NCBI GenBank assembly: GCA_027919835.1
Contig: JANVFP010000013.1
Span: 1 to 64,000, forward strand
Origin: Lentinula raphanica
Lineage: Eukaryota; Basidiomycota; Agaricomycetes; Agaricales; Omphalotaceae
DNA length: 64,000 bases
Reading direction: 5' to 3'
Of this stretch, positions 14,479 through 36,500 are shown one piece after another. The position numbers and the translations under genes were made by a program. Within the stretch, counting starts at the first letter, position 1, and each line of letters begins with the position of its first letter. A model generated the notes under the pieces. The model saw only the letters and a list, made by a program, of their open reading frames with translations. It had not been told where the DNA came from and searched no databases.

Positions 14479-14512
14479 CACACCGGAATTAGAATAAATT
14501 CTATCGAGCAGA
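14479..14512 (+). repeat. Left terminal inverted repeat of giant transposon
   Basis: The first 34 bp match the reverse complement of 36467-36500 at about 31 positions by eye. It starts CACACCGGAATTAG and includes CGAGCAGA. Confidence 0.88.
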
Positions 14513-15000
14513 AATCCTCACCGAACTTATATAAATCAGCGTAAATTTCACTCTTCACAATAGCACACATGAAAATATATATTGCTGCACAAATGAAAAC
14601 ATAGTTGAATGTATCCGAATTAGCGAGTATATCACATCGTCCGAAACGTTCGTCGAAAGCCCAAAAATCTTGTCAACAGAAAATGATGCAGAATTTTATA
14701 CTTTCTTTACACTTTTCCGCCTCATTGATTTCAGAGATTTTACCTGAGCAGAAGTTTCATTCGAAAGTTCACATATCATCGTTGCCGAAACGAGAATCAA
14801 AATAGAATATTTCTATTGACCTATTGCGAAGAACAAAAATGTAGTGAAAAGTCCTGCTTTTGAAAGAGTCGAAATAACGCGGTCGCGTTCGTGACCAGAC
14901 GCAGGCGCGTCGACGAAACTTGAGAGAACAACGTTAGTGCGATGATATTACAATTCGAATGTTTGGGGCACTTACGCATATGGAAAGACATGCAGCGCCT
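14513..15000. other. Left subterminal region of giant transposon
   Basis: No gene seen. The stretch is AT-rich with several short CGAAA/TTTCG words (for example GTCCGAAACG, GTCGAAAGC, GCCGAAACG). A GC-rich patch near 14880-14930 partly resembles, in inverted form, the patch near 36060-36110. Subterminal repeats of this kind are transposase-binding sites in plant CACTA elements; that role here is inference. Confidence 0.4.
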
Positions 15001-15603
15001 TCATAATGAAGCTATGACTCTTCGAATGACCGGTTTGATTACTTGCTCATAGACCTCCTGGGGATCGCCAACAAAAACGAATTTTTCGATGTGGACTGTC
15101 CCACCTGTTGAGTTCAAGCATGCAGTACTCGAGGAAAAAAGAAGAGTCTTACAATCACATGGAACACGCGGCCTACAGAAACATCGGGCCTCTAGTTCTA
15201 GATGTGCCAAATACTCTGCGAGGACGAAAAAATCAGGACTCGAGAAAACGCTCCGTATACGACATTTACCTGTTTTGTGGGCGAAGGGTGTCCACAAGGC
15301 CCCAAGCCAGATTCTTCGCTTTCCGGGGCATGCGGCCTCCCACTCGCTCATGCGCCGCCTCAAGTTGTTTGTCCTCCCTACTTTGAACACCCCCCCCAAC
15401 GACCCAACTTCGTGGAATACATATATCCAGCCACTGTTATCCTTGCTACTTGTGGCCCGAATATAGACTTTGCTGGAGAGTTTGGATAATTTATGGAACG
15501 ACCGCTTGGCATCGACAGTGATAATTGGTGTAGATTGCATAGAGATTGGGTGAGGAAGCTGAAGATGGAGGAAACAAGCGCGTGATGCTGAAGTAACAGT
15601 CAC
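15001..15603 (-). CDS. T5orf172 / GIY-YIG-type domain protein (giant element cargo)
   Basis: Small minus-strand gene nearest the left end of the giant transposon. The translated core reads GWIYVFHEVG then VFKVGRTNNLRRRMSEWE and CPGKRRIWLG. This is the pattern of the T5orf172 (Mug113-like) subgroup of GIY-YIG nuclease-fold domains, with Arg in KVGRTNN as the conserved basic residue. Two introns are likely: 15216-15269 (GTAAAT...CGCAG) and 15105-15152 (GTAAGA...AACAG). Splicing joins FAHKT to YLAHLELEARCF and then to GGTVHIEKFVF, which restores the usual domain. Such proteins are common in mushroom genomes; a DNA-cleaving or processing role for the transposon is inference. The exact N-terminus is uncertain. 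Confidence 0.75.
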   Translation of the reverse strand: MTVTSASRACFLHLQLPHPISMQSTPIITVDAKRSFHKLSKLSSKVYIRATSSKDNSGWIYVFHEVGSLGGVFKVGRTNNLRRRMSEWEAACPGKRRIWLGALWTPFAHKTGKCRIRSVFSSPDFFVLAEYLAHLELEARCFCRPRVPCDCKTLLFSSSTACLNSTGGTVHIEKFVFVGDPQEVYEQVIKPVIRRVIASL

Positions 15604-17313
15604 AGCTCAGACCGATGAGACCCATAACTAGAGATTACGACGCGACGCCAAAAAATTTTCCGACTGTGCATCCCGACGATATGACACTTCGGTCGAGAGT
15701 GTGTGCCATCGCGTCACTGTAGATCTTCTTCCTCTCCCTACTTGAGATGCGTTTCAACCTTATACAACCCTTTTCATATTCTCCAGGCGAGTACAATCAA
15801 AAACAATTTGGGCTTGAGGCGTTCTAGTTCTAGTTGGCATTGGGTTTGGGTTCAGGCATGAATTTGGGATTAGGTTTGGTGGTCGTCGTCGTTGGTCTCC
15901 AGCTTCCTCTTCATGATCCCTAATGACTGATTCTTCACAGCGCTATATTCTTTCCTACTCTTTTCGTTCTCTTGACCATCGTAGTCATCGCTAAGAATTC
16001 TCCCTAATCTATCTCGGGATTCACATCATTTCACCGATCTCACCACCTATCCCCATCCCCATTGTCACCCCAGCCGCTCCAACACCAACCGCCTTCACCC
16101 CACACCTCCGCACCCTACCCCTCCGCACCCTGACCATCCTCGGGACTGGCCCACTCTCACCACAACCAAGTCCCTGAAATGCAACCCTACAAAGACGACT
16201 TGATTTCCGAGCGAGATGAGCGTCGTTGGTAGGGAGGTGGATCCGAGCGAGATGAGCGTCATTGGTAGGGAAGTGGATGCGAGTGGGATGAGAATCAGGC
16301 TGAGCGAGTGAGAGGAGGAGGAGGAGAATGGCTCTTCCTCATCTTCGTCGTCGTATAAATGGGCGTCATTGACGTTAACGACGAGCAACGTCAACCTTTC
16401 GCACGTATCCTCCATGAAAGACTCATGCTTCTCCACCTCTGTCCGTGAGACGACAGTTCTCGAAGCCACTCGACCGAGGCGAATGTTTCGATTCGGCCCT
16501 GGTTGTCTTTATCTTCGCCTCCCGTCGGCATTTTCGATTTCGGTTTCACCTTATCCCGACTCCGCGTCGCGCATTCCCCTTCCCCTTCTCCAAGTTCTGT
16601 CTGATCTTCCCCTTCCCCTTGGCTTCGCTCTCGTCCTTTTCATCAAGAACACACCAGAAAATCCTCCTCCCACCGAGAACCACCTCTGCCCCTCCACCTC
16701 CACCTTTGGCAGAATCGGCCCCGAAACAGGAGCGAGAAACACCTGTCTGTCCGGATCATACAGACAATGTCTTTTGAATAGCATCGTGTTTTCCATCGTT
16801 GACATCGATGTCGGGTTCCCCTCATTGGCCTCATCGTCTCCCTCGTCGTCGCCGTTGGGTTGACAGCGGTGTTGAGATAGGGAGAGCCAAAAAATAAAAT
16901 CAGTACGGAGATTCGGCGAGGAGAGGCATTGAATTTCTGATATAGCATGGTCAAGTTCATATTTCCTAGTCGTTGAGGAACCCACTCGAGAAACGGCCTG
17001 TCCTTCCGAGCATGATTAGTTAGCGCGCATGAAAGATAACAGAGATGAATCGACTCACGGAAACTGAGTGTGTATGAGCGTTGGACTCTGTTCGAACTTC
17101 TGGAGTCGTCCGTTCGCAGGAAGGCGATAGTTTAAGGTCATTGCGGACCATAGACCAGTGGTTCCTCATTTGCGAACCATATAACGGTAGTTCTTCATTT
17201 GCGGACCATAGAACGGTAGCTCATCATCGCAATAAAGTTTAACAACAACATGGCTATTGGTATGACAAGTGTTACAGGACCTAGATGTTAATTTCCTGGA
17301 CAATATATATGAG
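15604..17313. other. Intergenic region of giant element, possible decayed gene
   Basis: No confident gene. ORFs on both strands between 16095 and 16985 are low-complexity. A minus-strand reading includes an acidic, Ser-rich stretch (LYDDEDEEEPFSSSSS) and a Gly/Arg-rich one, which could be a degraded exon set. Two tandem repeats lie here: a 36-bp unit at about 16206-16295 (GAGCGAGATGAGCGTC) and a roughly 30-bp unit at about 17140-17230 (GCGGACCATAGA). No database family recognised. Confidence 0.35.
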
Positions 17314-20300
17314 CTACTGTCTAGATAGATTTACCAATACAGATCTTCCATGAGAATAGTCGTAGCGAGCCGCATAGGCAACGACATCATCAAGTTCAAT
17401 GATATCTACGGCCTCTCTAAGTGTCGAGGAATATGTAGTAGCTGGAAAGTGGATGTATCGACGAAAGGGATCATGCAGTACCTTTCCAAGAGGGTTATAT
17501 GATCGCACGAGTAGCCGGACACCAGTATTTTTGCCACCACTATGCACGTTTTGAATGGACTGGATTTGACCGGCAACTGGTAATTCGCCCGATGACCGTC
17601 GATAAATGATATTGGAGTTCCCCGCATGGGTGTCAACGGGGGAAAGACGTCCATTGCCGTACTTGACATATGCACGCTGAGTGCCTTTCATCTCGACCAG
17701 TTCATCGTCATTTTGTGACACACTGACAGGAACAAAGCTTTGGTCAAAGAGGGTTTTCAACTGCTGCACAGCTGCAGGACAGTCAGGACGGCGAAGCCAG
17801 CGGCGGAGATTCGCTGTACGAGCTATGGTTTTCACTATTGTTGCTTCCATCTCACCTGTGGTTTTTAAGCTTCGTGGAATTCATGATCATCAGAAAAGGA
17901 CGTACCACCTCTGTGATCATTCGTGTTGACCTTTTGTAGCACACCAATTAGTCGTTCAAACGGAAAACACCACCACGAAAGGACAGGTCCAAAGAGCAAA
18001 AGGAAATCATAGATATGACCCGCGGCATGTATGTTAGGGCGAGGAATGCCTTCTCGAACATGCGGAAAGAGTCTTCGTAGATCTTGTGTCCAACTCGCTA
18101 TATATTCCTGATAGGCTCGAGCGCGAGAAGCAGTCATAGTGTAGCGGCAGGCCAGGATGGTAGCCTGAAAGAGCGCCATGGTATGATTGAGGGCTTGGAA
18201 AAGATGTCCTGCGTCTGTTTCATCGACAGGGGGTGGAATACCATCATTGTCACCCCAGAGTGTGACGAGCGCGATCGGGAGGTAGAGTGCACTGAGAGTA
18301 CGCCATTCGTCCGCTTTCAAAGATCCCGCCTTTGCTTCTCCAAAATTCTTGGGAACGGAATTGACCCAAGAGGGAGTAGAGGTCTCTCGAATAACAGACT
18401 GAATGTGGGCTAATGTTCCGGGTGTCCCTGTCGGTATGATGTAGGCATCCGAGCTGAGCGGTTGACGCAACCTCTGCGTTTCACAATTAGAATGCATTAA
18501 TAATAGACAGTGACCAAAGAGCTCACCCAATTCAACAACACCACGATGAGCTGATGCGAGGTAGCAGCTTCTTGACCCTTAGGAAATTCAAGTTGATCTT
18601 TGTTTCTACGTTTCGTTGTCTTCACGGCCCTAGCGATGTAGAGAGAAGACAGTCGTTCGTCGATGTTTTCGAGTTTCCTACTGAGACCTAACCCTTTGAT
18701 GATGGACTCCAAAGCACTCTTCTTACTTTGGTTGTGGAGACGCGTCCACATCTGGTCTAAAGTCAAACATTTCTTCCCCGCGAGCGATAGACAAAGAGTT
18801 TCCTGAATTTTACGAACCGCTGAGCTATGTCTCTCCTGAAGTTGGGGTGAGCCTGCTTGATATGTGTCTGGCACCCAAGGCCACTCGTATGCTACTTTGA
18901 GATCGTCGGCTGTGTGTTTGGAAGCAGATGCATCGAGACGAAGGACATGCCGGCAATGGTAATGAACGAGACCTTCGAGGAGGCAGTGCATGGCATCGAT
19001 GACGAGCATTCTCGTGGGATCCCAATACCCAAGGAGCCAAAACGAAGACCATCGGACGCCGTGTGTCTCAAAAATATGTTTGCGTTCGCCTAGAGTTTGA
19101 GCATTTTTGTACGACCACGCCCACTCCCGAAGCTCCTCCACATCCCTCGTCATCCATTGAGCATGATCTGTACAGTAAATTTGATCTTTGCCGCGTATTT
19201 TACAGACACTGCAGAGAAAGTTCGACATGTGGCCTTGTAGGCCAGCGACTTTGCGAGCAGCAGGGAGATCGTTTACAGATAGGAGGATTGCAGCTTCAAC
19301 CACAGCGCCGTCATCGGAATCGGCCGTACGCGAAATCTTGAGGCCTGGTTTCCATGTTGAGACAAATTGCTCAATGACAGGCCGAATATAGTGATCCAGC
19401 TCATCATAGGTGGGTTCATTAGGACCAGGGATGATGTTTGTGTACATGAACTCGGGCAGATATCGAATGGAGGGATCGAGGGCCAGATTAGCGCAGGATA
19501 TGACCCCTATAGAGTCATGAGCTCCACGTTGAGTGACGCGATTGGGATTGAAGAAATCAACGTGCATCGAGAATGCAAGACGTATCTTGTCCCCTCGATC
19601 AACGAAGAGTTTTCCATCCGGTCCTCGGAAGTCTTTGACAAAGTCTGCTTCGAAGACATTATGTACCTCGGACGAAGATTTGCCCGAGTGAATATTGCGT
19701 AGAGCAGAATCGGTGGCGTCTTTGGACTGCTCCACGAAGGTTGAATCAGCAAGACAACGAGCGAGATAATCTGGGAGGGATGACACGAGGTATGGCTTGA
19801 TGGGCTGGACGGTACCATCACGCCGAGTCTTCAGGAGATCGGTACCACATCTAGACGATCCGTCCTCGCCTACGACGTGATTATCACAAGTGTCGGGATA
19901 ATGGTAGAACGTCTTCTTTCCCGTCAAGGGGTGGGCTTTGTTGGTGTAGCTGCAGGTAGGACAGACGGCGTAGAGGTCGAAATGCCCATCGACGTCGAGT
20001 CTTTTGAGTGCATCAGGAATGTTTCTGGGCATTCCAGAGATGATGTCTTGCTGTGACGGCGAGAACTCAGGCGCCTGACTACCTATGCGGGAGCCGCAAG
20101 TATACATGCCTAGTTGGACACACGATACAGCAACTTGTAAGAGGAAATTGGATTCTACCAGAGACAGGCCAATGATCATATGGAAAATCACTGCCAGGAG
20201 AATAAGGACTTGATTTATTGGAGCCAGGTGCGGTAAGTCCGAATTAAAGAGGTTATCTAGGTTCTTTGAGTATACATGCGGACAATAGAGCAAACGAAAC

Positions 20301-21429
20301 ACACCTGCGTCAACTTGAATGGGGCTTTGAGGCATGATAGGTGCGTATAATGCGCAGACTTTGGCATGTAAGGTTCTCATGCGTTCCCGCAAAAGATCTC
20401 GTCGCTCCTTCAAGGTTATTTCTTTCGGCGCTGTCTTGGAAGTTTGCGTGGTCTTGTACTTGCGGTACTTCGCTCGTTCTTCGTACGTTTCGATGAGAGC
20501 AAGTCCGTCGTTAAGCCACTCGGTGACTGCATCAAGTCTTCTACACTGCAGATCCGTTGACAGAGCTGTGAAGTCGCTGGAGAAGATGTCGGTGTGGTGA
20601 GAATCGAACTCTTGTGTCAACTTCTGCAGCATGTTGAGCTCGTCTCGTTCAACTTTTCCTAGGCGAGAGCCTGTCGGGGACGGAGATCGCGAATTACTCT
20701 TCCTGGGGATAGATTGTCGAGCAAATTGCCTTCCAGGTCGAAAGGCGGGGAGAACAGAAGGTTTTCTTGGCTGGGAGACAGCTGCCAAACTCTTCATCGC
20801 CGAGTGAATGTCCAAAGATTGGACCGAGGATGGAATATGGGTGCTTGCGTCCTGGTAAAACTCAGACGCGCCGGAAAAGAGTTTGTTGTGACTGGACGTA
20901 TCCATAGGACTTGAAGTCAGTGTAGCTGCGGTGATGAGTGTCTCCAATGACTCTAAAGCACTAGAAGACTCATTCTGAGGAATAGCGTGAGTCGTTGACT
21001 GAAACAAGTTCCAAGTTCTCATTGACGCTTACCGGAATGTTGGTGCTGCCATGAGTTTTGTCTGAATCTCTATCGCGCAAGAAGGATCCTGGCATAGGAT
21101 TGTCATCTAAATGTAGGGTAGATATATCCTCTTGAAGTTGAGTTATGGGTGACCGAAGCGGTGATTCGAGATGCAGCTGAGCCATCTCCGACGTAACTCT
21201 ACTCATCGGAGACATAGGCTTGGAGATGATTAGCCGAAGACATCGATATAATGTGAAAGTATAGCTCACCTGCAGCACATCGTGTTCGGTAACTCTTGAA
21301 CCAGGACTGTTCGAACGAGACTGAGGCAAGTGAGTTGAGATTCGGTATGCATGAGATAACGCTTACATCACCCGTAGTTGATGAAGGATCCTGGCGAAGC
21401 GGTAACAAGCTTCGCAAAGCAGAGAACAT
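17314..21429 (-). CDS. Tnp2-type (CACTA) transposase
   Basis: Multi-exon transposase gene of the giant element. The main exon (18527-20974) encodes a zinc-binding-like block (CPTCSY...CDNH...RCGTDLL) and SMHVDFFNP with a candidate catalytic Asp. LLSVNDLPAARKVAGL and a CSVCK segment follow. Next comes the hallmark IFETHGVRWSSFWLLGYWDP / LVIDAMHCLLEGLVHYHCRHVL of basidiomycete Tnp2 proteins. Further exons (17906-18473; 17314-17855) carry NIHAAGHIYDFLLLFGPV-WWCFPFERLIGVLQ and a C-terminal extension. Introns inferred: 17856-17905, 18474-18526, 20975-21032, plus two short ones near the 5' end; the ATG at 21429 is the least certain point. Family knowledge places Tnp2 in Transposase_21. It appears undisrupted, so recent activity is plausible. 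Confidence 0.85.
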
Positions 21430-21691
21430 TGTGAGATGGCACGGACATATCGAGTGCAGTGCAAGTCGGTTTATTAGCATTTGAAAAGAACAAAGACGCA
21501 TGCTCGAACAATAGCGTTTGCCATATCAGGGATAAGGGTTGTTGTTGTTGTTCTTCGGAGTTTCTCGACAGTATCCAGGCGGGGACCGAAATGCGTCCTT
21601 ATGCGTCTCAAGATGTAGTTTAAGGTCATTTCGGACCAAATTCAGTAGAAAGCTACAAAATTTTAATTGTTTAGTTCCAGTTGTTGCAGCT

Positions 21692-24600
21692 GATACTGTA
21701 AAGCTTTTGTAAAAAGACCTGATGAGTTATCCAGGAGCTTTTGAAAATAGTTGTGACGACACAGAGGGGGCTCCGGAAATGGCTCCGGGGGGTGGGCATG
21801 CCTGTCACCACCTGTCACATCTGACCTATATTTACTGTTTTGGGTAGTTAATAATTATCCAGATATTAAATAAGCGGTACATTTGTAAAAAATCCTGATA
21901 AACTATAAAAATTCAAAAAAACCCCAAAAAACCTAATTAGGTCAAATCGGGGTATGTAAACAAAATAGCCTTATATGGTAAAAAATGCTGTAGGATCTAT
22001 CTAGGTGCTAAAAATAGCCAAAAAAAATCACTAAAAATGCTAAAAATATGTAGGAATGGTATATAGCCTATTGCAGATCCAGGCATCCAAAAATTACCAA
22101 AAAAGGAAATTTTTGATGATGATGTCATCTTGTAGCAAAAAATCTGAAAAAAATCCTAAAAATAGTCAAAAAATTCAGGGGTGCCTTGTTGGCCCTGAAA
22201 ATGCAAAATAAAAAAAAATACGCGACAAGTGTAAAAATTTTCATCACTCCAAATCATTCCAAATCCACTATACAGTCAGTATATATGATGTATATGCTAT
22301 ATTTAGCATCCTAGTACCTTTATTGAGCTAAAAATAGAACTTGATCTCATCTGATAGCAAAAAATCTGAAAAAATCATAAAAAATACTCAAAAAATTCAG
22401 GGGTGCCTTATTGGCCCTGAAAATGCAAAATAAAAAAATTTACACGACACAATTGAAAAACAACATCACTCCAAATCATACCAAATCCACTACACAGTCA
22501 GTATATATCATGTATATACTATTTATAGCACCCCTAGTACCCTCAATCACTTATATCACTCAAGAATCCTACCAAACTGAATGATTTGGGGTATTAAATA
22601 TATTGTACATGATATTTTTAACACACCTAGTACCCTTGATGACTCAGAACAATTTATATTACTCAATATGTTCAGTACACTTAACACTCATCAAACCTCA
22701 CACATGAAAACTCATAACAGTACTTATATGTATTATACTTAACACAGTTGACAATGAAAATACTTAAAACAGTGTTGTCAGTCACTATACTTAACACACT
22801 TAACAGTCAAAAAGTCGGAACAATGTTACTTTATATACATAACACACTCATTGTTATACTATAACACACTTATAACAACGAGTTTTGGGCGCTTATGGGC
22901 GCTTATTTGGTGTTTTTGAGTCGAAATTCATTAATAGCACACTCAATAATGTTTGTCTGGGCTCTATACTGTGTCAGGATGTTGTCTATATCATATTCTT
23001 CTAGATACAATTCAGAGAACTCGAAAATTCAACCTGTCGGGTTAGCTATATTGTGATCTTTTGAAATATAACAGTGTTTTATGTAAATGTCAATGCATAT
23101 GTCCATGTAATGCAAGTATACTGATGGTGGTTCATGAGGGAATCACTCCTACAGTCTACTAGAAGTGTCTGGACATGGTTCAGATACTCACTATGACTAT
23201 TGGACTCTGTGATATATATGTACATGTTTCATGTACACTATAGATGTCTACACCTACATGTAACAATAGATGTCATATTCAATGACCCCCATTACAGATC
23301 TCTTGGCTGTATCACATAGAGTTAGCATGGAATAGGTTGTAGGATGACTCTTTCCATGACCCAGTAGCAGTTTGACTTCATAACATGGGTGTATGCATTG
23401 ACATTTACATAAAACACTGTTATATCACAAAATATCACAATATAGCCAGCCCCACAGGCTGTAATCTTGAGTTCTCCAAATTGTATCAAGTGTAGTATGA
23501 TATAAACAACATCCTTACACAGTATAAACCCCACACAAAAATTATTGAGTGTGCTATTAAAGAATTTCGACTCAAAAATACCAAATAAGCGCCCATAAGC
23601 GCCCAAAACTTGTTGTTATAAGTGTGTTGTAGTATAACAATGAGTGTGTTATGTATATCAAGTAACATTATTCCGACTTTTTGACTGTTAAGTGTGTTAA
23701 GTATAGTGACTGATAACACTGTTTTGAGTATTTTCATTGCCAACTGTGTTAAGTATGATACATATAAGTACTGTTCTGAGTTTTAGTGTGTTAAATGTGA
23801 TGAGTACTAAGTATACTGAACATATTGAGTGATATAAATTGTTCTGAGTTTTTAAGGGTACTAGGTGTGCTAAAAATACCATGTACATTACATTTACTCA
23901 ATGTTGTCAGTTTGGTAGGATTCTTGAGTGATATAAGTGATTGAGGGCACTAGGGATGCTATAAATAGTATATACATGATATATACTAACTATATAGTAA
24001 ATTTGATAAGATTTGGAATGATGTTGTTTTTCAATTGTGTCATGTAAATTTTTTTATTTTGCATTTTCAGGGCCAATGAGGCACCCCTGAATTTTTTGAG
24101 TATTTTTTATGATTTTTTCAGATTTTTTGCTACCAGATGAGATCAAGTTCTATTTTTAGCCCAATGAGGGTACTAGGATGCTAAATATAGCATATACATT
24201 ATATATACTGACTATATAGTGGATTTGGTATGATTTGGAGTGACAAAAATTTTTACACTTGTCGCGTGTTTTTTTTATTTTGCATTTCCAGGGCCAACAA
24301 GGCACCCCTGAATTTTTTGACTATTTTTAGGATTTTTTTCAGATTTTTTGCTACAAGATGACATCATCATCAAAAAAATTTCCTTTTTTGGTAATTTTTG
24401 GATGCCTGGATCTGCAATAGGCTATATACCATTCCTACATATTTTTAGCATTTTTAGTGATTTTTTTTGGCTATTTTTAGCACCTAGATAGATCCTACAG
24501 CATTTTTTACCATATAAGGCTATTTTGTTTACATACCCCAATTTGACCTAATTAGGTTTTTTTGGGTTTTTTTGAATTTTTATAGTTTATCAGGATTTTT

Positions 24601-24796
24601 TACAAATGTACTGCTTATTTAATATCTGGATAATTATTAATTACCCAAAACAGTAAATATAGGTCAGATGTGACAGGTGGTGACAGGCATGCCCACCCCC
24701 CGGAGCCATTTCCGGAGCCCCCTCTGTGTCGTCACAACTATTTTCAAAAGCTCCTGGATAACTCATCAGGTCTTTTTACAAAAGCTTCACAGTATC
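21692..24796. mobile_element. 3.1-kb foldback element with ~1.4-kb inverted arms
   Basis: Left arm (21692 to about 23110) and right arm (about 23375 to 24796) are near-identical reverse complements, leaving a loop of about 260 bp. Ends read GATACTGT...ACAGTATC, with CT on both sides as a possible 2-bp duplication. Distinct landmarks are the CTCCGGAAATGGCTCCGG block near each end and the GGGCGCTTATGGGCGC motif. The arms are AT-rich and contain no conserved ORF. It sits between the Tnp2 gene and the Spt5-like gene of the giant transposon. Its superfamily is not recognised. Confidence 0.85.
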
Positions 24797-24944
24797 CTGT
24801 GGTTGTTGGGAGTGCGTCTTTTCGGATTGTGCTGTTCGAACTTCGCGATACAAATCACATATAGTCATTGACATGGATCAGGATACAGGAAAGTTGAATC
24901 AATAGCGATACTCCGTAAATTCACATTGCAGTATGTACATAGCA

Positions 24945-27900
24945 TTAAGCACGACGAGGTCTGATATCTACAGGAGAATAAGAAAACTCTGCTCTGACTT
25001 CACGCAGAAGCTCTGTAGACCACTTCCGTTCCTCCGCAGACTCCTTCACAAATTCGAGATCGTCAGGGTGCATGTCAAGGAGTTCATGTCCTTTGCTTTC
25101 CTTGTGTCCGGAACGGTCAACCGTGATCGTAACGAGACAGTGGTTATCCTCCTTCTTCTCCTTCTCGTAAAAATGGTGCACTCGACGAACCAATTTCCCA
25201 ATGTGTTCAGGCTGATTCCTCGCAACCACCATCAAACCTTTTTCCGTAGCTGGTTTGGCTTGTGAGCGAAAGCAGATGATGGAGATGAGAGGAACCTGGA
25301 TCATCTTGGAAGGCGTGGGTCGATGAATTATACCGATACCATTTTCGCTGGCTGTGCTCTCGACAAAAATACCATCCTTCTTATTGAGAGTGTCCAGTCC
25401 TCCCCCCCTGATATCGACCTTGATTGGAATTCCCAGTAGTTTGGGATTGAGAAGCCAATGGTCAGGCGGCGGTGGAGGTGGAGGTTCCGGAGAAGGGCTA
25501 CGAAACGGTAGAAGGGACGGAGAAGCGGGAGTCCACGGCAATGGTGACCTTGAAACTCCTGTTTGAGAAACAGGATTCGGAGTTACATGTCCTGGAGTCT
25601 GGGGAAAGGATGCGTCTCGCCCCGGGGTCAAACTTGATGGATTCGAGGCGGCGCAGAATAGTACTTCCTGCTCCAGATCACCATCGGTGAGTTGTTCAGG
25701 GGAATCAGAGAAATCGGAGTCGTCGAGTTGGCATCGGTATTGTTCATCTGGCAGGTAGAATGATTGGCGGGCTGTAGGCAAGAAAACTTCGCATAAACGC
25801 TTTTTTGAGCTGAGAATCATTTGAGCATTCAACACATCACTGGACTGGAGCATTACTTACTCAGAGAATCTGAGTGCATCATAGTCCACCTTCACCAATT
25901 GGCTAGAAGGAGTGACGGTAAAAACACGTCGTTCCACGGTGAGAATGAGTCCGCTTCGCTTTCCGCGGAGAGACGGTTCAACGGGATAACGGTTGACGTC
26001 CTTCACGAGCCCATACTGGCCTTTATAATCTCCATGTACAAATTTGACAAGGAATCCGAGCCATGGCACAGATCCAGTGCGCATTGCCTCGATGGACGAA
26101 CTGATGCTGAATTCCTTCAATTGGTGACCTTCAAGTGGGCGATATGTTATCAAAGGCGCTCGAGTACTGTACGACTGTTAGTTGACAGTGTATGGACGCA
26201 ACGGGTCACTCACTGTCGTTCACAAACTGCAGCATGGTCAATGTCAATGGAACACCTATATCTGGGAACCCATAACGAAAGACAAAGCCCGCCTCGAAAG
26301 TCGCGTCGGACGTTCTTCACGATAGCGCTGTTGTTCATGAAGCGGCCGGACTGTATGGTAACCTCAACATCCTTCCAAGGTACTTCGACATTGAACTGTT
26401 GTTGATGGCGTTGGAGTGGCTGATGATCCATCAATAACCTTCGCGTACTGAGTTCGGTTTAGCTGCATGTGGACACACGGATTTGGATCCAGCTCACCTT
26501 CTCTCTCTTACGGTATGATAACCGACAACGCACTCCTGCTTGTTAGGGAGACTAACAGTGATAGAGAGTGATCTGGTGGAATTCACTGCAACATCTTTGA
26601 TGACACCGGTTGAGCCTACATGAGGCCCAGACACCAGCATAACTTCCACGTCGAGCCAAGGAACTTTGGTATGCGAGTAATCGGGTACGGCGAGCATCAC
26701 TGAATTTGCGTGAACGCGAAAATCCTGATGCAAAAATGTAAGTACAGTTTCCACGGAACAGCGGTTACTCACCAATCCATTCGTATCTTGACCAATACAG
26801 ATCCCCAGGAGCGTATCACATTTCCCCACGACAAATCCCTTTTTCCCTATATGAACTCCAGCTACTACTTCAATATACTGGCCCAAGAGAATTTCCTTCT
26901 CCAGATTTCGTATGAGAATTGGCCATCTTTCACCTTCGATATCGACCTCGCATGCAGGATCGGATCGAGGAGTTTTCGGAATGAAGGATATCACTGTTCC
27001 GAATCGTTGACCTTCGTCTGAGTGAATCAGGACTTTCTCTCCAGGCTCGAACTGCCAGAACGAGGGTAAAGGCATGGAGGACATCTCGATCAAGTGGCCA
27101 GCGCCAGCCAATGATTTTGCATCCATGAAAAGACGGCATATGGAGGGAGGGATTTCTCGAGCAGGACATAGCGAGATAGAGTTGAAAACTTTGACCTGAA
27201 GACCGTACTCGAATCGCCAGGACTTGTAAGAAAATACATGGTCTCGTTTGTGTCGTATGAGTTCATCTTGGACGCATTTTGCAGGATTGAAGAGTTGGGG
27301 AGGAGGGCGAGATGGCAGCTTGCGTTTAGAAGAGAGAGAAGGTGCGGAAGGACCATCTTCATCGGTGAAGTGAAGACGAGGCACAACCATGACGCGAACG
27401 CCTCTGATTGAAGCTTCATCACGGAAATCATCGACTACGAGTCCGATGTCGCCCTTGTAAAGACCCAGTTTGATCTGAACCCATTGACCAGGAACGAACA
27501 CAGGTTCTGTGTCATTCGATGGGATAGTGAGACATCGGTTCAGTTCCGCTTCGGGTACGATAGCTAGCGTAGATAGCTTGAGATCTGAATACTCGCGAAG
27601 AACTTCTCTAAGCGAGCTAATGCCTGATCTAGTGAAGCTAGCCTCCAGATAGAGATAACCAACGTCACGGGGGTTGTAAAACGCCGCTCGTAGTTCGAGC
27701 GACAAGCTTTCGTGCCTCATCATGAGTTCATATACAAGGAAATACTCTTGTCGAGGCTGAAGACATGAGATTGAGTGTGTAGACTTGCCAGAAAGCAAAA
27801 CGAAACACTCACAGTGCATTTGACTCGCCAAAGGGGCCAATCCTGTCCTTGAAACCATACTCGACTAGAAAGATCTTCTGGTACGTCTGTAGGGGTGATG

Positions 27901-28233
27901 AAGTCTCTATGGATATAGGTGTTTTCGATATGTCCCACGAGCGCGTCTAGCCTTGTGGTACGAGGGGAGTTGAGAGTTTGTGAAGGGGTAGGTCGACTCA
28001 GTATGCTTGATAGTTCTAAGTTCGAATCGGCAGGTTCAGAGGACGAATGAGGCTCTGTAATCACCGTCAAAATTGGCCAAGTCAGAACAAAAAAACGTAC
28101 CTTCTACATCGACCTGGTCCTCGAACCCACTATTGCCCTCAACGTCAGTGAAATACTCCTCATCACTGTCTTGAGCCTCTAGATCGATAAACTGGTCCTT
28201 CGTGAGTTCCTCCATTGCAACGCCACTGGCCAT
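24945..28233 (-). CDS. Spt5-like multi-KOW protein (giant element cargo)
   Basis: Multi-exon gene resembling transcription elongation factor Spt5. After an acidic N-terminus (QDSDEEYFTDVEG) comes an NGN-like region (EYFLVYELMMRHESLSLELRA ... GYLYLEASF). At least five KOW-like units follow: GQWVQIKLGLYKGDIGLVVD, GQYIEVVAGVHIGKKGFVVG, DVEVMLVSGPHVGSTGVIKD, DVEVTIQSGRFMNNSAIVKN and VKFVHGDYKGQYGLVKD. The C-terminal exon is Pro/Ser-rich and ends in a charged region. Likely introns include one at about 28102-28056 (GTACGT...TACAG) and one ending near 27760. Genuine Spt5 binds RNA polymerase II through NGN. This shorter, divergent protein is more likely an element-carried paralogue; its job is unknown. 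Confidence 0.75.
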
Positions 28234-28399
28234 TCAAGTCGAATTTTGAATACCTGATTTTTCTTCATTATTGGTGGTCCTGACTTTAAGCAAAGTGTTA
28301 GTTTCACTCGTGATACTCAGTAGGCTTTAAATCATACTTGATTAATACAAGATGCTACGGTACTCTATTTATTGTTGAATAGTTGCCACCCAACATATG

Positions 28400-28641
28400 C
28401 AGGTGGAAGTTGGAGAAGAAGAAACGAGAAATTGCTCATATGACTGACGCTGCGTGATGAGTGCTCACGCGTCAGATTCGCCCACGAAAATGGAAGGTAG
28501 TTCACAGATCGTTCTGTCTAGAACCTATTGGCGCCGTGAACTAGTTTCCATTTTCGTGGGCGAATCTGACGCGTGAGCACTCATCACGCAGCGTCAGTCA
28601 TATGAGCAATTTCTCGCTTCTTCGATTCGAACTTCCACCTG
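28400..28641. repeat. Hairpin element of about 240 bp
   Basis: Near-perfect inverted arms of about 98 bp (28400-28497 and 28544-28641) with ends CAGGTGGAAGTT and its complement. Weaker pairing extends about 20 bp further out. No clear target duplication. It separates the divergent ends of the Spt5-like gene and the downstream WD40 gene. Confidence 0.8.
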
Positions 28642-29138
28642 TCTTTGTCGGTGGTCAGCTATGCACTGAGTTTTAACCTCTCATTCAGTCATAAGTAGAG
28701 GTAGACATGTATACTACCTATGGATATTACAAGCTAAGCTCAAACAATAGTTAAGATTATCGAGAAGACCTGGAAATCCAGAAATCGTTATGCAAGTTCG
28801 TTCTGCGCATCAGCCTCCCCGAAGTCAATATGCACGATGCCTCAGAAAAAGCAGAGCTCGTCCTCCTCAATCCTCCGAAGTGAAGCTGTCGATGGGTATG
28901 TTCCTATCACAAAGTTGGGAAGAATTTGACGCTGAAAGGGTTGATGCAGAGCGTCCGTCATATGTCGATTACAAAAAGAAGGGAGATGATATAACATACG
29001 GAGAGGTTTGAGAGCACATCAGGTATGTGGTTTAGAGAAATTTGAGATGCTCAAGAGTTCGAGTCATCCACTGACGTCCATAACTTAGGACCGGGAATTC
29101 CTATCCGAATATCAGCAATGCTTCGCTACAGACGCGAA
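28642..29138. other. Region between hairpin and WD40 gene
   Basis: No confident gene. A 73-codon plus-strand ORF at 28790-29011 has no recognisable feature beyond a charged C-terminus (WEEFDAERVDAERPSYVDYK) and could be one exon of a small gene. Confidence 0.3.
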
Positions 29139-30576
29139 TCAACCTACCAAGATGTTCTCCAAGACGAATAATCCAGACAGGATCACCAATAACATCCAAT
29201 GGACCTCCTCCCAAATGTTTATCTGCGTCGAAGTCTCTCTTGGAGTGGTCACAACTCTCTCCCAAATCTGTATCTCTGGTCTCTTCACATTCTCTCCTGA
29301 AAGCCCCACAAAAATCAAAGGAACACCGCAAGATTCAATCGTCTGAATCGGTGTCAGTGGTTTTCGTATCGTTGGAGAAAAACTCTTACCGAAATGGACT
29401 GAACCCAGTCCCTGATACCAACATGGATTCTATCGGTTACTTCTCCTGTGCGGCGATCGAACATGTATATCGCGCCGTGGTCACTACCGCTGACGATGGT
29501 ACTTGTACCATCGAGAAAGGCGACGTTACGAGATCTGCGCTCTCTGTGCGGGACTTCGAAAGTCTTCACTCTCTCCGTCCCGCCCATCTTGAACAGAGCG
29601 ACTCCTTCGGATACATCGTCGAGGATAAGAGCATCATCTTTAGTGTTGAGGATGGCATGACCTCTATAGGTGAGTTAGCACAACACTTGAGCGTCTTTCC
29701 AGTACTCACATTACTATGCCTGTCGTCTTTGACTTCAAGATTTTGCCTGCGTCGTCTAGAATATAACTTAGTGGCCAAAGTAAGTTCAAGTCTTCATGTC
29801 TGTTGTCTCTGTACTCACATAACGCCGTCTTCTCTACCAAAGGACCATAGTTCTGGCCCTCGCACGCCGACCTGCCCGAACGCGACCGCCTGCGGCCAGT
29901 GCCTGACAATTGAGACAGACTTGACCGTACGAGGCACCATCCCCTCGTCGATCACGAATCTGTGGATGACCTCAGCGCGATGTACAACAGCAAGCTGGCC
30001 CGAGTTGGTGTCGTAAGCCATCGCAGTGATCTCATCACCATTGGACCCTCCCTCAAGCCTCTTGCAGTAGATCTCGGAGAACTATTTGGTTCGTCAGATC
30101 CTATATACTCATCTGCGTTCCGATGATGAACTCACCCCATCTCTGGTTTTATTTCGTTGCCAGATGCATAGAAAGCCATGCTCTGTGCCATAGGCCAGTC
30201 CCTCATCCTCGTTATCAGCGCGTGTAAGCCAAACTATGGCTGTCGTGATACCTCGATCTGATACTCCCGTCGGGCAAGCGAGTGGTTTTTCATTCGACAC
30301 TTGCCAGATCTTTGTCCCGCCTTCGCCTATGCAAATGTGAGTGATACAGTTTCGAAAAAATGATGCAGATGCAAGGAACTCACCTCCAGAAGCCAAATAG
30401 AAACCTAATGGGTGTGCTGCAATGCAAGCCACGGCTCCGTAGTGGCCTCTCAAAACTCCGCGTAGGCTATACTTATGTTGCTCGCTGGTGATAGCGTTGG
30501 GATTGGCTTGAAAAATGTTCATTTGGTCTTTTGAGTTCGTGTTCTCGGTATAGCTTCTTTTATCTCTGGAATCCAC
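29139..30576 (-). CDS. WD40-repeat protein (giant element cargo)
   Basis: Intron-rich minus-strand gene. Exon translations show WD40 blades: LRGHYGAVACIAAHPLGFYLASGG spliced to GGTKIWQV; TTAIVWLTRA...GFLCIWQRN; DEITAMAYDTNSGQLAVVHR; and RNVAFLDGTSTIVSGSDHG followed by AIYMFDRRTGEVTDRIHVG. The last exon ends in a hydrophobic stretch (VHWMLLVILSGLFVLENIL) that could be a membrane anchor. About five introns with GTGAGT- or GTAAGA-type donors are needed; one joins GG|EGGTKIW near 30330-30385. WD40 propellers are protein-binding scaffolds. Partner and role are unknown. The start at 30576 (MDSRDKRSYTEN) is the first plausible ATG. Confidence 0.75.
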
Positions 30577-30829: not shown

Positions 30830-31563
30830 ATGGCTTCGCTCCCTACTACCGAGTCCTCACCCACCCCTACATTCACTACCTCGAGGACTGCTGCGCGTCC
30901 TCGAGTAATTCCTCTATTTGCAACTTCCGTCATTCGTCGACGCCGACGTCCTCTCTCTTTACACCATAATTTGCCTCCTAAACCTTATATACGTCACAGA
31001 CCCACGCCTGTTAATACTTCCTCTTCCTCTGGTACTTCAACTGAAGAGCCAGGTTCTCCCCTCACGCCGATCGAGGATACATTTTCAACCTTTGTCGATT
31101 CCAATAATCCCCCGGACGCACGTCCGATCTTCATTCCTAAACCTAACAATCCTAACATCAACAATATTGGTTGGGCGTCCGCTTCCTTGAAAGCTTATCG
31201 TGTATGTGATTCTCTTGTGCTCTCATTTTTGAGTATCAAGCTGACGTCGGTTTTGTAGACTCAAGCCAGGGAGGCGGTAGAACATTATCTTGATCATCAT
31301 GTCCCTTTTGCCTCACAAGATACGGCCGCGCTTGAAAAAGCTATTGAACATGCAAGTTGCTCCTCTAAATAACATTCCCATGATTCATTGCTGAACTACT
31401 ATGATATCAGGTTGAGTCTGCTGTGGCGTTCTTCAGAGCTTACGAAGACCATTGGGCAGCAAAGCTTCTTCTCAAAGATCAGTTAAAGAGTGTGAAAGAC
31501 ACTCGGACCAAAGCTGAAGCGCGCAAGGGAAAGAAGCAGAAGGAGAAGGAACAGGAAAAGTAG
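30830..31563 (+). CDS. Small conserved-looking hypothetical protein (cargo)
   Basis: Three exons, 30830-31201, 31259-31351 and 31411-31563, join in frame to a 205-residue protein. Each exon is a whole number of codons. The first intron is GT-AG. The second starts with GC (CAT|GCAAGT) and ends TATCAG, a GC-AG intron. The N-terminus is Ser/Thr/Pro- and Arg-rich. The middle is helical (TQAREAVEHYLDHH; AVAFFRAYEDHWAAKLLLKD) and the C-terminus is a lysine-rich tail (KARKGKKQKEK-like). No domain recognised. The good frame conservation across splice sites supports a real gene. Confidence 0.65.
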
Positions 31564-31783: not shown

Positions 31784-32332
31784 ATGGAAAAATCTGTGAT
31801 AAAAGCAAGAAAATCACAGATAAAGAAATCAGACCCCACCCAACTCGCAAAATCCTCACCTGCAGCTGGCTGCTTCCACACTCCTTTCGTTATGCCACGA
31901 ACACGCAAGTCCATTCCTGATGTAAGTGTTTTTATATTATTTGGATTCTCCTCTAACTTCTCTACAAAGGCATCCGTCTCCTTCCAAGTGAGAGGATTCC
32001 ATATCTCGACAAATAACACGACCACCCGAATCAAAGTCTCTACCGATTCCACTCGCCCCCCGCGCCATCATGATGTAATCCGCGTCCCACTTGTAGAGTC
32101 CCGTTTTGTCGGTTGGGATGATACCCAAGCTCATATTCACGATATTGACGTTATGTACCGTCGATGTCGGTATAGGGTGTTCTTCCAGCGACACCAATAC
32201 CTACCCACGAATGGGTTCCTCGGTATCCAGGGAGATCTCATTGTGATGCGTGTCGGATCCAAGAATACTGAAAACGTAGTCAACGCTCGTAAGGGTGACA
32301 GCGGTCGCATTCGTACTCTTGCTCAACGGTAA
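31784..32332 (+). CDS. Hypothetical protein, possibly two exons (cargo)
   Basis: A plus-strand frame runs open to 32332. An intron at 31922-31969 (GTAAGT...CAAAG) is plausible and keeps the frame. The C-terminal half reads like a compact domain (DIDVMYRRCRYRVFFQRH ... NGFLGIQGDLIVMRVGSKN), ending RIRTLAQR. I do not recognise the family. The N-terminal limit is uncertain; MPRTRKSIPD within the frame is an alternative start. Confidence 0.5.
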   Translation: MEKSVIKARKSQIKKSDPTQLAKSSPAAGCFHTPFVMPRTRKSIPDVSVFILFGFSSNFSTKASVSFQVRGFHISTNNTTTRIKVSTDSTRPPRHHDVIRVPLVESRFVGWDDTQAHIHDIDVMYRRCRYRVFFQRHQYLPTNGFLGIQGDLIVMRVGSKNTENVVNARKGDSGRIRTLAQR

Positions 32333-32616: not shown

Positions 32617-32880
32617 TGTACGCCCACTCCTCTGCTAAACACTTATCACTGCTGATCGAAAGAACAGGGGCGCCCGGATCGCGTCGAAAAGACAATAGCG
32701 GAGGCAGGACAGGGCAGGACATCGGCTCCACTCGAAAGTGGGGTGCCAAATGGGAACAGCCTGGAACAGCCGGAACTAACATGTACGCCCACTCCTGTCG
32801 AATGCTTATCATTACTGACTGAAAGAACAGAGATGCCCAGGATCGCGTCAAAAAGACAATAGCTGAGGCAGGACATCTGA
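32617..32880. repeat. Two direct repeats of about 100 bp
   Basis: Units near 32617-32722 and 32782-32880 start TGTACGCCCACTCC and contain AAAGAACAG, GGATCGCGTC and AAAGACAATAGC. They are about 165 bp apart with some divergence. No gene is seen between 32333 and 33080 apart from this repeat. Confidence 0.75.
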
Positions 32881-33080
32881 TCCAGCCTAATTCACTCTAT
32901 TGATAAACTCCGAAAAGATAATTAGTGAGTCGTCATTGACCTCTTCAATGAATCAGGATAACGACAAATACTCTGTTCAAAAAAAATTTCCGTTCATCTT
33001 TCTCTATCAGCCTGGTGCTTAGTTTTTTTCCACCACACTCTTTAGGCAATTTTACTTCATCTCTTTCCAACTCGTCCAGC

Positions 33081-35682
33081 ATGGTTTTCGGTTTTGGCGG
33101 CAGCGACTCCCCAAGCCAGTCATCTTCAAGTCCCCAGCCGTTTCCCCCCTATCAGACGTACTCCCGAAAACGAACTAACGATGTTGAGACGGAGGACAGC
33201 AGTGATGCTACAACTCCGGATCCAACCTCCACACCATACGACAAGAAGGACAAATATAGAGCCGTGGCAGGCCCGGAACAAATGAAGTTCGATCAAGTAA
33301 GGCCATAGGTTGCCAATTTGAAAGTCTGACCTTTCTTAATGATTTGCCAGATGATGCGTGAAGTGCAAGAACTCAAGAAAACCAATATGTTTCTGACTTC
33401 GAAAGTCACTGAAGCAGAGCGCAAGGCAGAAGAATTCAGACTCTCAGCGGATGAATTCAGGGAAGCAGCCGAAGAAGCTAGGTCGTCAGCTGAAGAAGCA
33501 TTCGTGACTGTCTCAATGATGGTAAGAATCGGTTGGTCGCCAGACTTATACTGAATTCGTTATTGCAGGATGGTCAAATTACAGAACTACGCAACCAAAT
33601 CGCAGCATCGGAGATGGACGTCGATAAATCCGTGAGTGAGATCTCTAGGAGTATCTGCTCGTACTGAAATTGGCTTGCAGGTTCAGATAGACCAACCAGA
33701 CATGGCTCGAAGGACCGGCGAACCTGAAGATGCATCAATCGCTGTCCTTGTATGTGCTTTCTCTCCCCCATCTGCCCCTGTACTGCCGCCGTCTCACACT
33801 TCAGCAAAGGAGAGCCAAGCCAACCAACAGCAGCAGAGTCCACAATTGGATGCCGAGCGCATTGCACAAATCATATGTCATACACTTCCCGGAACCTTCG
33901 CGAGTTGATTCATCTAATGGGTGTTACTGGCAGATCAAGGAAAAGGAGGAAGCACTTCAGAACGCACTGATGGAAAACCAATGGTTTCGGCAACAAATCG
34001 ACGAGACGGTATGTACTCTGATACTGATATTTGTTGTTTTAGCTGAGTTTGTCTCATAGAAGATTCAACGTGATCAGGCTCTGAAGGACAAGGTATTTGT
34101 GCTCTCGTGATCGGTTTCTACCATGCTCAATCTTCCGCAGGAGGAACGCGACATAGAAATCATCGAGCTCAGGAATCAGGCTAAGAACCGTCGAAGGTCT
34201 CCGAGTTCACCCAATGCCCCCCCGGGGACTTCGTCCGCTACGGAAAATATGAACATGGACACAGATTCATCCAGTAACGGCACCCCTTCTTCGTCAGGTC
34301 CTTCATCCACTTCTACTCCAACCAGTTCCACTTCTTCCACTGGTTCTCCTCACGGTTCTGACTCTCACGGTCCTGGTTCTCCTCACGGTCCTGGTTCTCC
34401 TCACGGTCCTGGTTCTCCTCACGGTCCTGGTTCTCCTCATGGTTGTGGTTTGGACGTTCGCTTCATCATAAAGGAGACCATTGCTGCCATGGCAGCACAG
34501 GCCCCTCAAGGTTCACCCTCGACAGCACCTCGTAGTGACAAGAGGAAGAAACAGATGCCGAAGCTAGGAAGCGTCGCTTACAGGGACCTACTCAAGAAGA
34601 GTGCTCTAAACGCTATCAGTGATGATGATGAGCGCGCATGGAGGGTACGATAACGCATCTCGCTAGCCCTTCGAAGATTTACTGATATCAACTCATTGTA
34701 GAACTTTATGCGAGAGCGCTTTCGCAATGCTACTGGTCAAGACACTATCAATTCATTTCATCGCTATGCCCCCATCCAGGATCATGTCGCAAAAGCGTTC
34801 GAAAATGGTATCGGACCTGGTCCCACTGGTGATACGGAACACACACTCTACTTCGGCACGAATTATAGCCGATCAGCATGGAACAAAGCTGTTATCGACA
34901 ATATCCTACGTACTGTTCCTAGCAAGAGACAAGAACTCCGATATCAACTTTGTGATCTGGACGTGGACGTACAAGGTGCCATGTTGTGGGACTTCATCAA
35001 ACAGGCCCAAGTCTCGTGGGCTCGCTTTCACCCACGTCTCGTAGATGACAAGCCCGAAACTCCAGCGGAGGCCAGTGCTCGAGCTCAAGAGTACAACGAA
35101 CGTCGTATCGTCGATACTCGTATCAATACCCGGAAGAACCAGGCGAGCTTTGAGTCTCTTCATATTTTACCTAGAAGCTGATAGCAGTGTCAGAAGTTTG
35201 AACGGCGCAAGAAGGATATAGAGTTATTGCTGGAAAAGGCGGACCCCAATAGCTTAGATCGCACTCACCTTCAACGCACCAAAGATGTTCTCCTTACGCT
35301 TGGTGTAGATGGCCAGTCATCGGAGGAGTCGGGGGAAGAGGATACGTTCTTGGTAACTGTTCCCCATTATCGACGGCGGATCATTACACGTATGATGACG
35401 GATCTAGACAAGCGCGCCAAAGATATGTCGAAGGAACAACGCCTTGTGAACAAGAGAGCAAGGCCGCGACCAAAACACATCCGCGAGAGGTCGAATAAGA
35501 TAAGCACAAGGACAACAAAGAAGGGTCTCCCTCGCTCTTTCTATCATCGACGATATCTCCGACAATTACCTCCTTCTCTTCTTGGACAACTTCATATCGA
35601 CAAAAGGGAAACTCCCAACTTCGAGCAGTGGGCTTTGACGGGGCAGGCTGACTCGGACAGTGATTCTGATGTAGATATCTAG
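33081..35682 (+). CDS. Coiled-coil / low-complexity hypothetical protein (cargo)
   Basis: Multi-exon gene starting MVFGFGGSD. Well-supported exons are 33081-33296, 33351-33521, 33569-33631, 33681-33749, 34141-34644, 34702-35142 and 35194-35682, with short exons between 33805 and 34092. The N-terminal half is a heptad-like coiled coil (QELKKTNMFLTSKVTEAERK; ALQNALMENQWFRQQIDET). A Ser/Pro/Gly repeat follows, with several 18-bp units encoding SPHGPG near 34370-34440. The C-terminal half is a conserved-looking globular region (SFHRYAPIQDHVAKAFENG; LYFGTNYSRSAWNKAVID) with a basic tail. The intron at 35143-35193 would have a GC donor. Family not recognised by name; such proteins recur beside transposons in agaricomycetes. 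Confidence 0.65.
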
Positions 35683-36466
35683 TCTTATCGTTGCTCCAGG
35701 TTCTAGTACAATACAAGGCGGGCTTTGTATTCTCTCTCTTGACAAATGTAACATCAAATGTCGCTCTTTCAATAATAGTAATGTCGTTGGCTTTGAAGTA
35801 ACACGCATAACAATTTCTGTTCACCGAATCTATACGATAAGAGAATGGTCCGTAATGACCTAAAACTATGTGGGTAGTATGAGTTTTCGAAAGGTCGGTC
35901 ACCGTTTTATGTTCTACCTTTTTGTCCTTAGACTGATACTCAGTATGACAGTCTCTTTTCATTCTTTGTTTCTTAGGATGAGCATCTATTGACAAGGCCT
36001 GCGCGCCATGAGCTAGAACGCTCAGAAACTCATGTTTTGTCTCTTACTCTCCCCTTCAACTCTCATTGACGCACGCGCGTCTGGGCGCAAACGCAGCTGC
36101 GTTGTTTCAATGCATTTGAAACTAACAGTTTCGGTTCACATTTCCATTTCTGCGATAAGAAGGTAGATATATCTAGATTCAGAGCACATTTCGGTGCTCA
36201 TGGTTCATTAAATTTCGTATAGACTCTCTACTCGTGCAAAATATGTGGATATAATTGGTTAGAAATGTGTATCGAAAATTAGAATTTCTGTGTTACTCTC
36301 TTCCGACATGATTTATTGAGTTTCAATGAATGTTTCACCCGATAAGATAGCCTTACTGAATCGTGTACTTTTGAGTATACTTTCGTCTGTGTGAAAAGGG
36401 AAAATTTCATTCAAGCTATCTATAGGAACGAAATATGGAGTGAAATAAGTACTATCGGTGAAACAT
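35683..36466. other. Right subterminal region of giant transposon
   Basis: No gene supported; ORFs here are not conserved-looking. AT-rich, with TTTCGGTTCAC, TTTCGGTGCTC and TTTCACCCGAT words and a GC-rich patch near 36060-36110 (GCGCGTCTGGGCGC). It may contain transposase-binding subterminal repeats. Confidence 0.4.
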
Positions 36467-36500
36467 TCTGCTCGTTGGAATTTATTCTATTTCCGGTGTG
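36467..36500 (-). repeat. Right terminal inverted repeat of giant transposon
   Basis: Reverse-complement partner of 14479-14512, ending TTCCGGTGTG. The adjacent CTA (36501-36503) repeats 14476-14478. Confidence 0.88.

What the first reader, a model, noticed from the sequence alone, without database searches (positions are those of the whole stretch)
14479..36500. 22-kb cargo-carrying CACTA-like transposon caught with both ends and a 3-bp target duplication
Termini CACACCGGAA.../...TTCCGGTGTG, a CTA duplication, and the undisturbed gag sequence elsewhere in the window define the borders to the base. Inside are a Tnp2 transposase and about six non-transposase genes: T5orf172/GIY-YIG, Spt5-like multi-KOW, WD40, coiled-coil and two small ones. 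Ordinary CACTA elements carry one or two genes. The frame of the host gag is restored exactly when 22,022 bp plus 3 bp are removed. That the cargo moves as a unit and helps the element is my inference.
Basis: partly seen in the sequence, partly recalled or inferred. Interest (0 to 1): 0.93.

Follow-up and report, generated by a model that had tools for sequence, protein, structure and literature searches.

The report
Large multi-gene CACTA transposon in mushroom
A mushroom's jumping gene about 19 kb long (22 kb with another repeat nested inside it) carries six genes besides its transposase, some of which, including a relative of the transcription factor Spt5, also sit beside the related transposase in other mushroom genera.

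Summary
CTA|CACACCGGAA…TTCCGGTGTG|CTA bounds 14479-36500, and the joined flanks align without a gap to an uninterrupted copy in the window (95.6%, 549 bp). The termini define a family: 41 hits against 0 for a reversed control, and 14 of 14 short derivatives fetched carry 3-bp duplications. The transposase is intact.

The "cargo" is better called an accessory module. WD40, Spt5-like KOW and Tnp2 keep their order in Collybiopsis (merged gene models); KOW and Tnp2 apparently share a contig in Rhodocollybia. All seven genes show in-frame dN/dS of 0.13-0.49 against decayed copies in the same genome; shifted-frame controls give 0.71-2.45.

Corrections: 3,115 bp is a nested foldback repeat, so the element proper is about 18.9 kb. 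No second copy with both ends at this spacing was found; the best relative is a colinear, decayed gene block of about 28 kb on C20 without recognised ends. What the accessory genes do is inferred. A 16-20 kb EnSpm with 4-5 ORFs is reported from a red alga, so this is a new variant of a known kind.

The parts
14476..14478 (.). target-site duplication CTA, left copy
   Evidence: empty site
14479..14514 (+). left terminal inverted repeat (32/36 identical to right; weaker similarity, 65%, to about 239 bp)
15001..15540 (-). T5orf172 (GIY-YIG-like) protein, start codon assigned by eye; dN/dS 0.32 against the C13:134.6k copy
   Evidence: Pfam 36.2 bits, cut-off 20
17314..21429 (-). Tnp2 transposase, 5 exons, 1293 aa, no internal stop; dN/dS 0.18 over 838 codons
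21687..24801 (.). nested 3,115-bp foldback repeat flanked by GTTGTTG (21680-21686, 24802-24808); not part of the element proper
24945..28233 (-). Spt5-like NGN-KOW protein, 6 exons, 1000 aa; dN/dS 0.18 over 979 codons
28376..28665 (.). about 290-bp hairpin between the KOW and WD40 genes, also in the C20 copy
29139..30522 (-). WD40 protein with a hydrophobic C-terminal segment, 6 exons, 377 aa; dN/dS 0.15
30830..31563 (+). small protein G4, 3 exons, 206 aa; dN/dS 0.35 (17 changes only)
31892..32332 (+). small protein G5, 2 exons, 130 aa; dN/dS 0.13
33081..35682 (+). coiled-coil protein CC, multi-exon, about 688 aa in a hand-made model; dN/dS 0.33 and 0.49 in the two parts compared (471 codons)
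36465..36500 (-). right terminal inverted repeat
36501..36503 (.). target-site duplication CTA, right copy

Best explanation
A CACTA/EnSpm-type DNA transposon of about 18.9 kb (22.0 kb with a nested foldback repeat), probably autonomous, inserted in a retroelement-like ORF of Lentinula raphanica. Tnp2 cuts and pastes DNA between the CAC...GTG inverted termini and makes 3-bp duplications (read from the structure and from the family of short derivatives; no experiment). T5orf172, KOW, WD40, G4, G5 and CC form an accessory module kept by purifying selection; WD40-KOW-Tnp2 keeps its order in another genus. Inferred: the module serves the element. The Spt5-like protein would act on Pol II transcription or silencing of the element, CC could be a TnpA-like end-binding or assembly partner, and T5orf172 a nuclease used during transposition or repair.
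For: Termini, duplication and gapless empty site. Terminus pattern 41 hits (the window's own two included), reversed control 0. 14 of 14 distinct 816-821 bp derivatives fetched have perfect 3-bp duplications, 11 different triplets; nearest-pair identity 96-99%. Tnp2 without stops, motif residues conserved, grouped (100/100) with Collybiopsis, Tetrapyrgos and two unnamed proteins, apart from the 19 other own-genome rows of that tree. Colinear CC-G5-WD40-KOW-Tnp2 on C20 and CC-G5-WD40-KOW on C69. Collybiopsis P0006 = WD40+KOW and P0022 = KOW+Tnp2 in the window's order; Rhodocollybia P0016 (KOW) and P0027 (Tnp2) with consecutive tags and equal contig length 54,044. In-frame dN/dS: KOW 0.18, Tnp2 0.18, T5 0.32, CC 0.33 and 0.49; WD40 0.15, G5 0.13, G4 0.35; shifted frames 0.71-2.45.
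Against: No second copy with both termini around these genes was found. The C20 and C13:134k copies lose similarity to the window within one base of each other, 770 bp before its right terminus. 38 of 45 KOW-family clusters in this genome have no Tnp2 within 30 kb (7 do, 2.1 expected, window and C20 included). None of 27 other Tnp2 loci shows KOW, WD40 or CC within about 1.5 kb, though the window's own locus shows none in that flank either, so this says little. KOW genes 64-75% identical lie on C25, C27 and C44 without WD40 or G5 hits. The compared copies are decayed: C20 KOW has two in-frame stops and an insertion, C20 Tnp2 has small indels and a foldback. No experiment on any protein.
Confidence: 0.8

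Rival explanations
1. Composite (macro-) transposon: two ends of one terminus family happened to flank a gene block with an older Tnp2 element, and the whole was mobilised once.
For: No other copy found pairs these ends with these genes; the last 766 bp on the right match elsewhere only C28:149.7k (70%, last 360 bp) and 49-bp ends; C20 and C13:134k diverge from the window at nearly the same base; C13:134k has the left end next to an inverted CC fragment.
Against: The two ends resemble each other over about 239 bp; T5orf172 lies just inside the left end here and at C13:134k; the interior encodes an intact transposase with a gene order shared with another genus.
Confidence: 0.15
2. The accessory genes are passengers of no use to the element.
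For: Gene content varies between related loci; KOW, G5 and CC occur without Tnp2.
Against: dN/dS below 0.5 for all seven genes and conserved order in Collybiopsis.
Confidence: 0.15
3. WD40-KOW-Tnp2 is a host gene cluster with a domesticated transposase.
For: KOW and Tnp2 are under selection and the cluster is shared between genera.
Against: Block or parts of it at several places in L. raphanica (C13, C20, C69), and Collybiopsis KOW or Tnp2 proteins listed with three different contig lengths; here the block lies inside termini with a duplication, within a repeat.
Confidence: 0.05

Closest known systems
CACTA (En/Spm) superfamily, e.g. CNIRT6 of Cryptococcus (PMC12810828, passages seen)
   Same: CAC...GTG inverted termini, 3-bp duplications, CMC-type transposase
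   Different: CNIRT6 is about 7.5 kb, begins CACTG and contains one reported 6.9-kb gene; this one begins CACAC, is about 18.9 kb net and has seven genes
En/Spm families of the red alga Chondrus crispus, 16-20 kb with 4-5 ORFs (review PMC6431247, passage seen; original not seen)
   Same: CACTA element enlarged by extra ORFs
   Different: the passage does not name the extra ORFs; fungal host and Spt5-like/WD40/T5orf172 set here
Fungal DNA transposons with a TET/JBP dioxygenase (PMC12730594; abstract and sections 3.1.5, 3.2.2, 4.2 seen)
   Same: EnSpm, Plavaka, Kyakuja and other elements with an accessory gene thought to counter silencing
   Different: no TET/JBP match in the Pfam scans of the predicted proteins; other accessory genes instead
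Spt5 and plant RDM3 (SPT5L/KTF1; the synonymy is recalled)
   Same: NGN plus KOW array; profile matches fungal Spt5 at 2e-34 and 'RNA-directed DNA methylation 3' at 7e-13
   Different: encoded beside a transposase; the sequence match covers about the first 420 of 973 profile positions
VANDAL/VANC anti-silencing system (search listing and abstract beginnings)
   Same: a transposon that encodes its own anti-silencing protein, as a model
   Different: plant elements; no sequence relation was tested

Membership tests
CACTA/EnSpm | termini 5'-CAC...GTG-3' (criterion used in PMC12730594 section 3.1.5) | tested here: met
CACTA/EnSpm | classical terminal pentamer CACTA or CACTG | tested here: not met
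   terminus is CACAC; filed under EnSpm by the wider CAC criterion, so 'CACTA-type' is meant in that sense
CACTA/EnSpm | 3-bp target-site duplication | tested here: met
   CTA in the window; 14 of 14 short relatives fetched
CACTA/EnSpm | Transposase_21 (Tnp2) with D, D, E and C(2)C between second D and E | tested here: met
   which residues are catalytic was assigned by eye; E seen in the spliced window protein, P0022 and P0024 (the other rows end before it)
CACTA/EnSpm | H(3-4)H between second D and E (PMC12730594) | tested here: inconclusive
   the strictly invariant pair is H(2)H; an H(4)H is present in five of six rows
CACTA/EnSpm | arrays of short subterminal repeats (recalled) | tested here: inconclusive
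   most frequent 7-mers occur 2-4 times in the terminal 300-600 bp
Plavaka | termini TGT...ACA or CATCA...TGATG (PMC12730594 section 3.2.2) | tested here: not met
KDZ | 4-8 bp target duplications (KDZ1-3 in PMC12810828 passages) | tested here: not met
   3 bp
Starship | tyrosine-recombinase captain gene (recalled) | tested here: not met
   no such family in the proteins scanned

The most novel reading that the evidence does not exclude
A lineage of mushroom CACTA-type transposons has taken over a Pol II elongation factor: its own Spt5 paralogue, kept with a WD40 protein and the transposase in more than one genus, engages the host polymerase to secure transcription of the element or to block its co-transcriptional silencing. 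It would be the first transposon-encoded Spt5 known to me (none in the listings of searches).
Probability: 0.3. Interest if true: 0.82.

Novelty: new variant of a known kind. Interest (0 to 1): 0.6.

Why it matters
It gives a base-exact example, with an intact transposase, of a fungal CACTA-type element about two and a half times the length of CNIRT6, with accessory genes that are under selection and in part kept between genera. It makes a general question testable: whether DNA transposons recruit transcription machinery (Spt5-like), not only demethylases, to escape silencing in mushrooms.

Tried and rejected
Plavaka, KDZ and Starship were rejected on termini, duplication length or missing genes. 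'Passengers only' was downgraded by dN/dS and shared order. Structure predictions of CC (mean pLDDT 41.4, 3 rows) and the KOW protein (42.4, 14 rows) were too poor for a fold search, so none was run. T5orf172 found no solved structure by sequence. Tnp2 found nothing in plasmids, which are no fungal collection. KOW-Tnp2 proximity over the genome gave a modest excess only. Some dN/dS runs had a wrong phase: Tnp2, G4, G5 and CC, G4 and G5; the values used are Tnp2, KOW, CC and T5 and G4, G5 and WD40 (WD40 was partial). Codons with a stop or gap in either copy were left out. About 390 bp in the middle of CC (33750-34140) and its 3' end were not compared. I did not scan the viral or prokaryotic contig collections. 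Papers opened without use: PMC13066641 and PMC4455052 (passages), PMC10799480 (term search, no occurrence), PMC1636069 (passages).
Full report
What is there. The window is the first 64 kb of contig C13 in a 49-Mb, 75-contig genome. The length of C20 (1,076,856) equals the contig length listed for a Lentinula raphanica KOW protein (P0002) and two CC proteins, and that of C69 (27,837) equals that listed for P0030. The species is therefore almost certainly L. raphanica (Agaricales, Omphalotaceae).

Borders. 14479 starts CACACCGGAATTAGAATAAATTC and the sequence up to 36500 ends in its imperfect reverse complement (22 of 24, 32 of 36 positions), with CTA on both sides. Joining 300 bp of each flank, with one CTA, gives a sequence that aligns without a gap to 53074-53622 (95.6%, 549 bp). 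The join is open in two minus-strand frames, like the uninterrupted copy; the ORF has no Pfam family.

The terminus family. The 23-base terminus with up to 3 mismatches occurs 41 times, the window's two ends included, and its reversed control 0 times. Loci were fetched for the first 30 hits. They hold 14 distinct short elements of 816-821 bp with both ends, and 14 of 14 have a perfect 3-bp duplication, 11 different triplets in all. Each has a partner 96-99% identical, while the family as a whole goes down to 64%, which suggests several subfamilies with recent movement. Two more pairs (C26, C44) are visible and were not fetched. Five ends in the fetched loci had no partner there, the left end at C13:134573 among them; three further unpaired hits (C16:208725, C20:669718, C49:103361) were not fetched.

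Genes. Scripted and hand-made models give, from the left: T5orf172 (-), Tnp2 (-, 1293 aa), the nested foldback, Spt5-like KOW (-, 1000 aa), WD40 with a hydrophobic C-terminus (-, 377 aa), G4 (+), G5 (+), CC (+). Pfam. The KOW profile matches Spt5 structures at 2e-34 over about the first 420 of 973 profile positions, and plant RNA-directed DNA methylation 3 at 7e-13. Tnp2 has the Transposase_21 domain and the motifs VDFFNP, NDLPA, C(2)C and PFERL; their reading as D, D and E is mine.

Nested element. 21687-24801 is a palindrome flanked by GTTGTTG. Its first 600 bp match 40 scored arms at 98-100%, the window's own included; as one insertion can give two arms I count about 33 places, and 40 of 896 candidates were scored. 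Copies lie at the end of the Tnp2 homology and inside the WD40 gene of the C20 copy. Without it and one GTTGTTG the element is about 18.9 kb.

Other copies. C20 holds CC (from 180.8k), G5 (184.1k), WD40 (186-190k), KOW (192-206k, split by about 10.8 kb) and Tnp2 (206.3-209.1k), colinear with the window. C69 holds KOW, WD40, G5 and CC in the same order. C20:161.6-163.7k has T5orf172 and CC; protein P0029, which merges G4, G5 and CC, probably lies there, which is my inference. C13:134573 has the left terminus, T5orf172 and an inverted 3' piece of CC. C28 has G5 and CC at 168.6-171.8k and a degenerate right terminus at 149.7k. C1 has G5 and CC. No copy with both termini around the genes was found; this is the main gap.

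Other species. The protein searches scored capped candidate lists (7,995, 7,990 and 7,989) and returned 21 KOW, 6 Tnp2 and 3 CC proteins. Collybiopsis confluens P0006 is one gene model with WD40 (61% over residues 11-373) followed by KOW (49% over 400-1363); P0022 has KOW (51%) followed by Tnp2 (64%); the order equals the window's. Rhodocollybia butyracea P0016 (KOW) and P0027 (Tnp2) have consecutive tags and equal listed contig lengths, so they are apparently neighbours; P0008 begins with the WD40 C-terminus (58% over 66 residues) before KOW. Tetrapyrgos nigripes has a nearly full-length Tnp2 (P0024). In a tree of 26 rows the window, C20, two Collybiopsis, one Tetrapyrgos and two unnamed proteins form one side of a branch (100/100) against 19 other own-genome rows; 8 of 28 own-genome loci offered gave no suitable ORF and were left out, and the program warned of long branches.

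Selection. Nei-Gojobori dN/dS between window and C20 (for T5, C13:134k): KOW 0.183 (979 codons), Tnp2 0.177 (838), T5 0.319 (200), CC 0.334 (158) and 0.494 (313); WD40 0.150 (352), G5 0.133 (130), G4 0.351 (205, 17 changes). The same alignments read in shifted frames gave 0.71-2.45. dS differs along the element (0.06 in G4, 0.12 in WD40, 0.19 in KOW, 0.29-0.37 in the others), which suggests a mosaic history. The C20 copy is decayed (two in-frame stops and an insertion in KOW, small indels and a foldback in Tnp2), so the values are averages over a time under selection and a time without.

Against the reading. 38 of 45 KOW clusters are not within 30 kb of a Tnp2. None of 27 other Tnp2 loci shows KOW, WD40 or CC within about 1.5 kb, but the window's own locus shows none in that flank either. 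KOW copies on C25, C27 and C44 lack WD40 and G5 hits. C20 and C13:134k lose similarity to the window at 35730 and 35731, 770 bp before its right end, so the right end may have a separate history.

Mechanism. Cut-and-paste by Tnp2 at CAC...GTG ends with 3-bp duplications is read from structure and family, not from experiment. That the accessory genes serve the element is inferred from selection and shared order. For the Spt5-like protein I think action on Pol II transcription or on silencing most likely. Plant SPT5L/KTF1 acts in siRNA-directed silencing (PMC3111484, title and abstract beginning), and VANC proteins show that transposons can encode anti-silencing factors (PMC10398659, PMC5735166, abstract beginnings).

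Literature. The listings of searches showed no report of a CACTA element with an Spt5-like gene or of this element; some listings were short against the papers found (15 of 24, 15 of 99, 8 of 93), and subscription journals are largely not held. The 16-20 kb EnSpm families of Chondrus crispus with 4-5 ORFs (PMC6431247, passage) are the nearest precedent for size, TET/JBP-bearing fungal elements (PMC12730594, abstract and three sections) for accessory genes.

Noticed in passing
window 21687-24801: 3,115-bp palindromic foldback repeat with 7-bp flanks GTTGTTG; 40 scored arms at 98-100% identity (about 33 places by my count, 896 candidates), so a recently expanded element of unknown type.
   Followed up: partly
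14 loci, e.g. C7:214070-214887, C9:1423919-1424735: Non-autonomous elements of 816-821 bp with the same termini and 3-bp duplications (14 of 14 fetched); each has a partner 96-99% identical.
   Followed up: yes
C13:134573-136357 and C20:161592-163745: Variant arrangement with T5orf172 next to CC on the same strand; suggests shuffling or inversion of the interior.
   Followed up: partly
window 28376-28665: About 290-bp hairpin between the KOW and WD40 genes, shared with the C20 copy.
   Followed up: no
window 1-14478 and 36504-64000: Dense mutually inverted repeats with sub-threshold reverse-transcriptase and recombinase-like similarity, possibly a DIRS-like retroelement (recalled label).
   Followed up: no
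window 59741-60676: ORF with an HTH_Tnp_1 match above its Pfam cut-off (26.8 bits, cut-off 24.1) and a sub-threshold DDE_3 match: another DNA-transposase gene or remnant.
   Followed up: no
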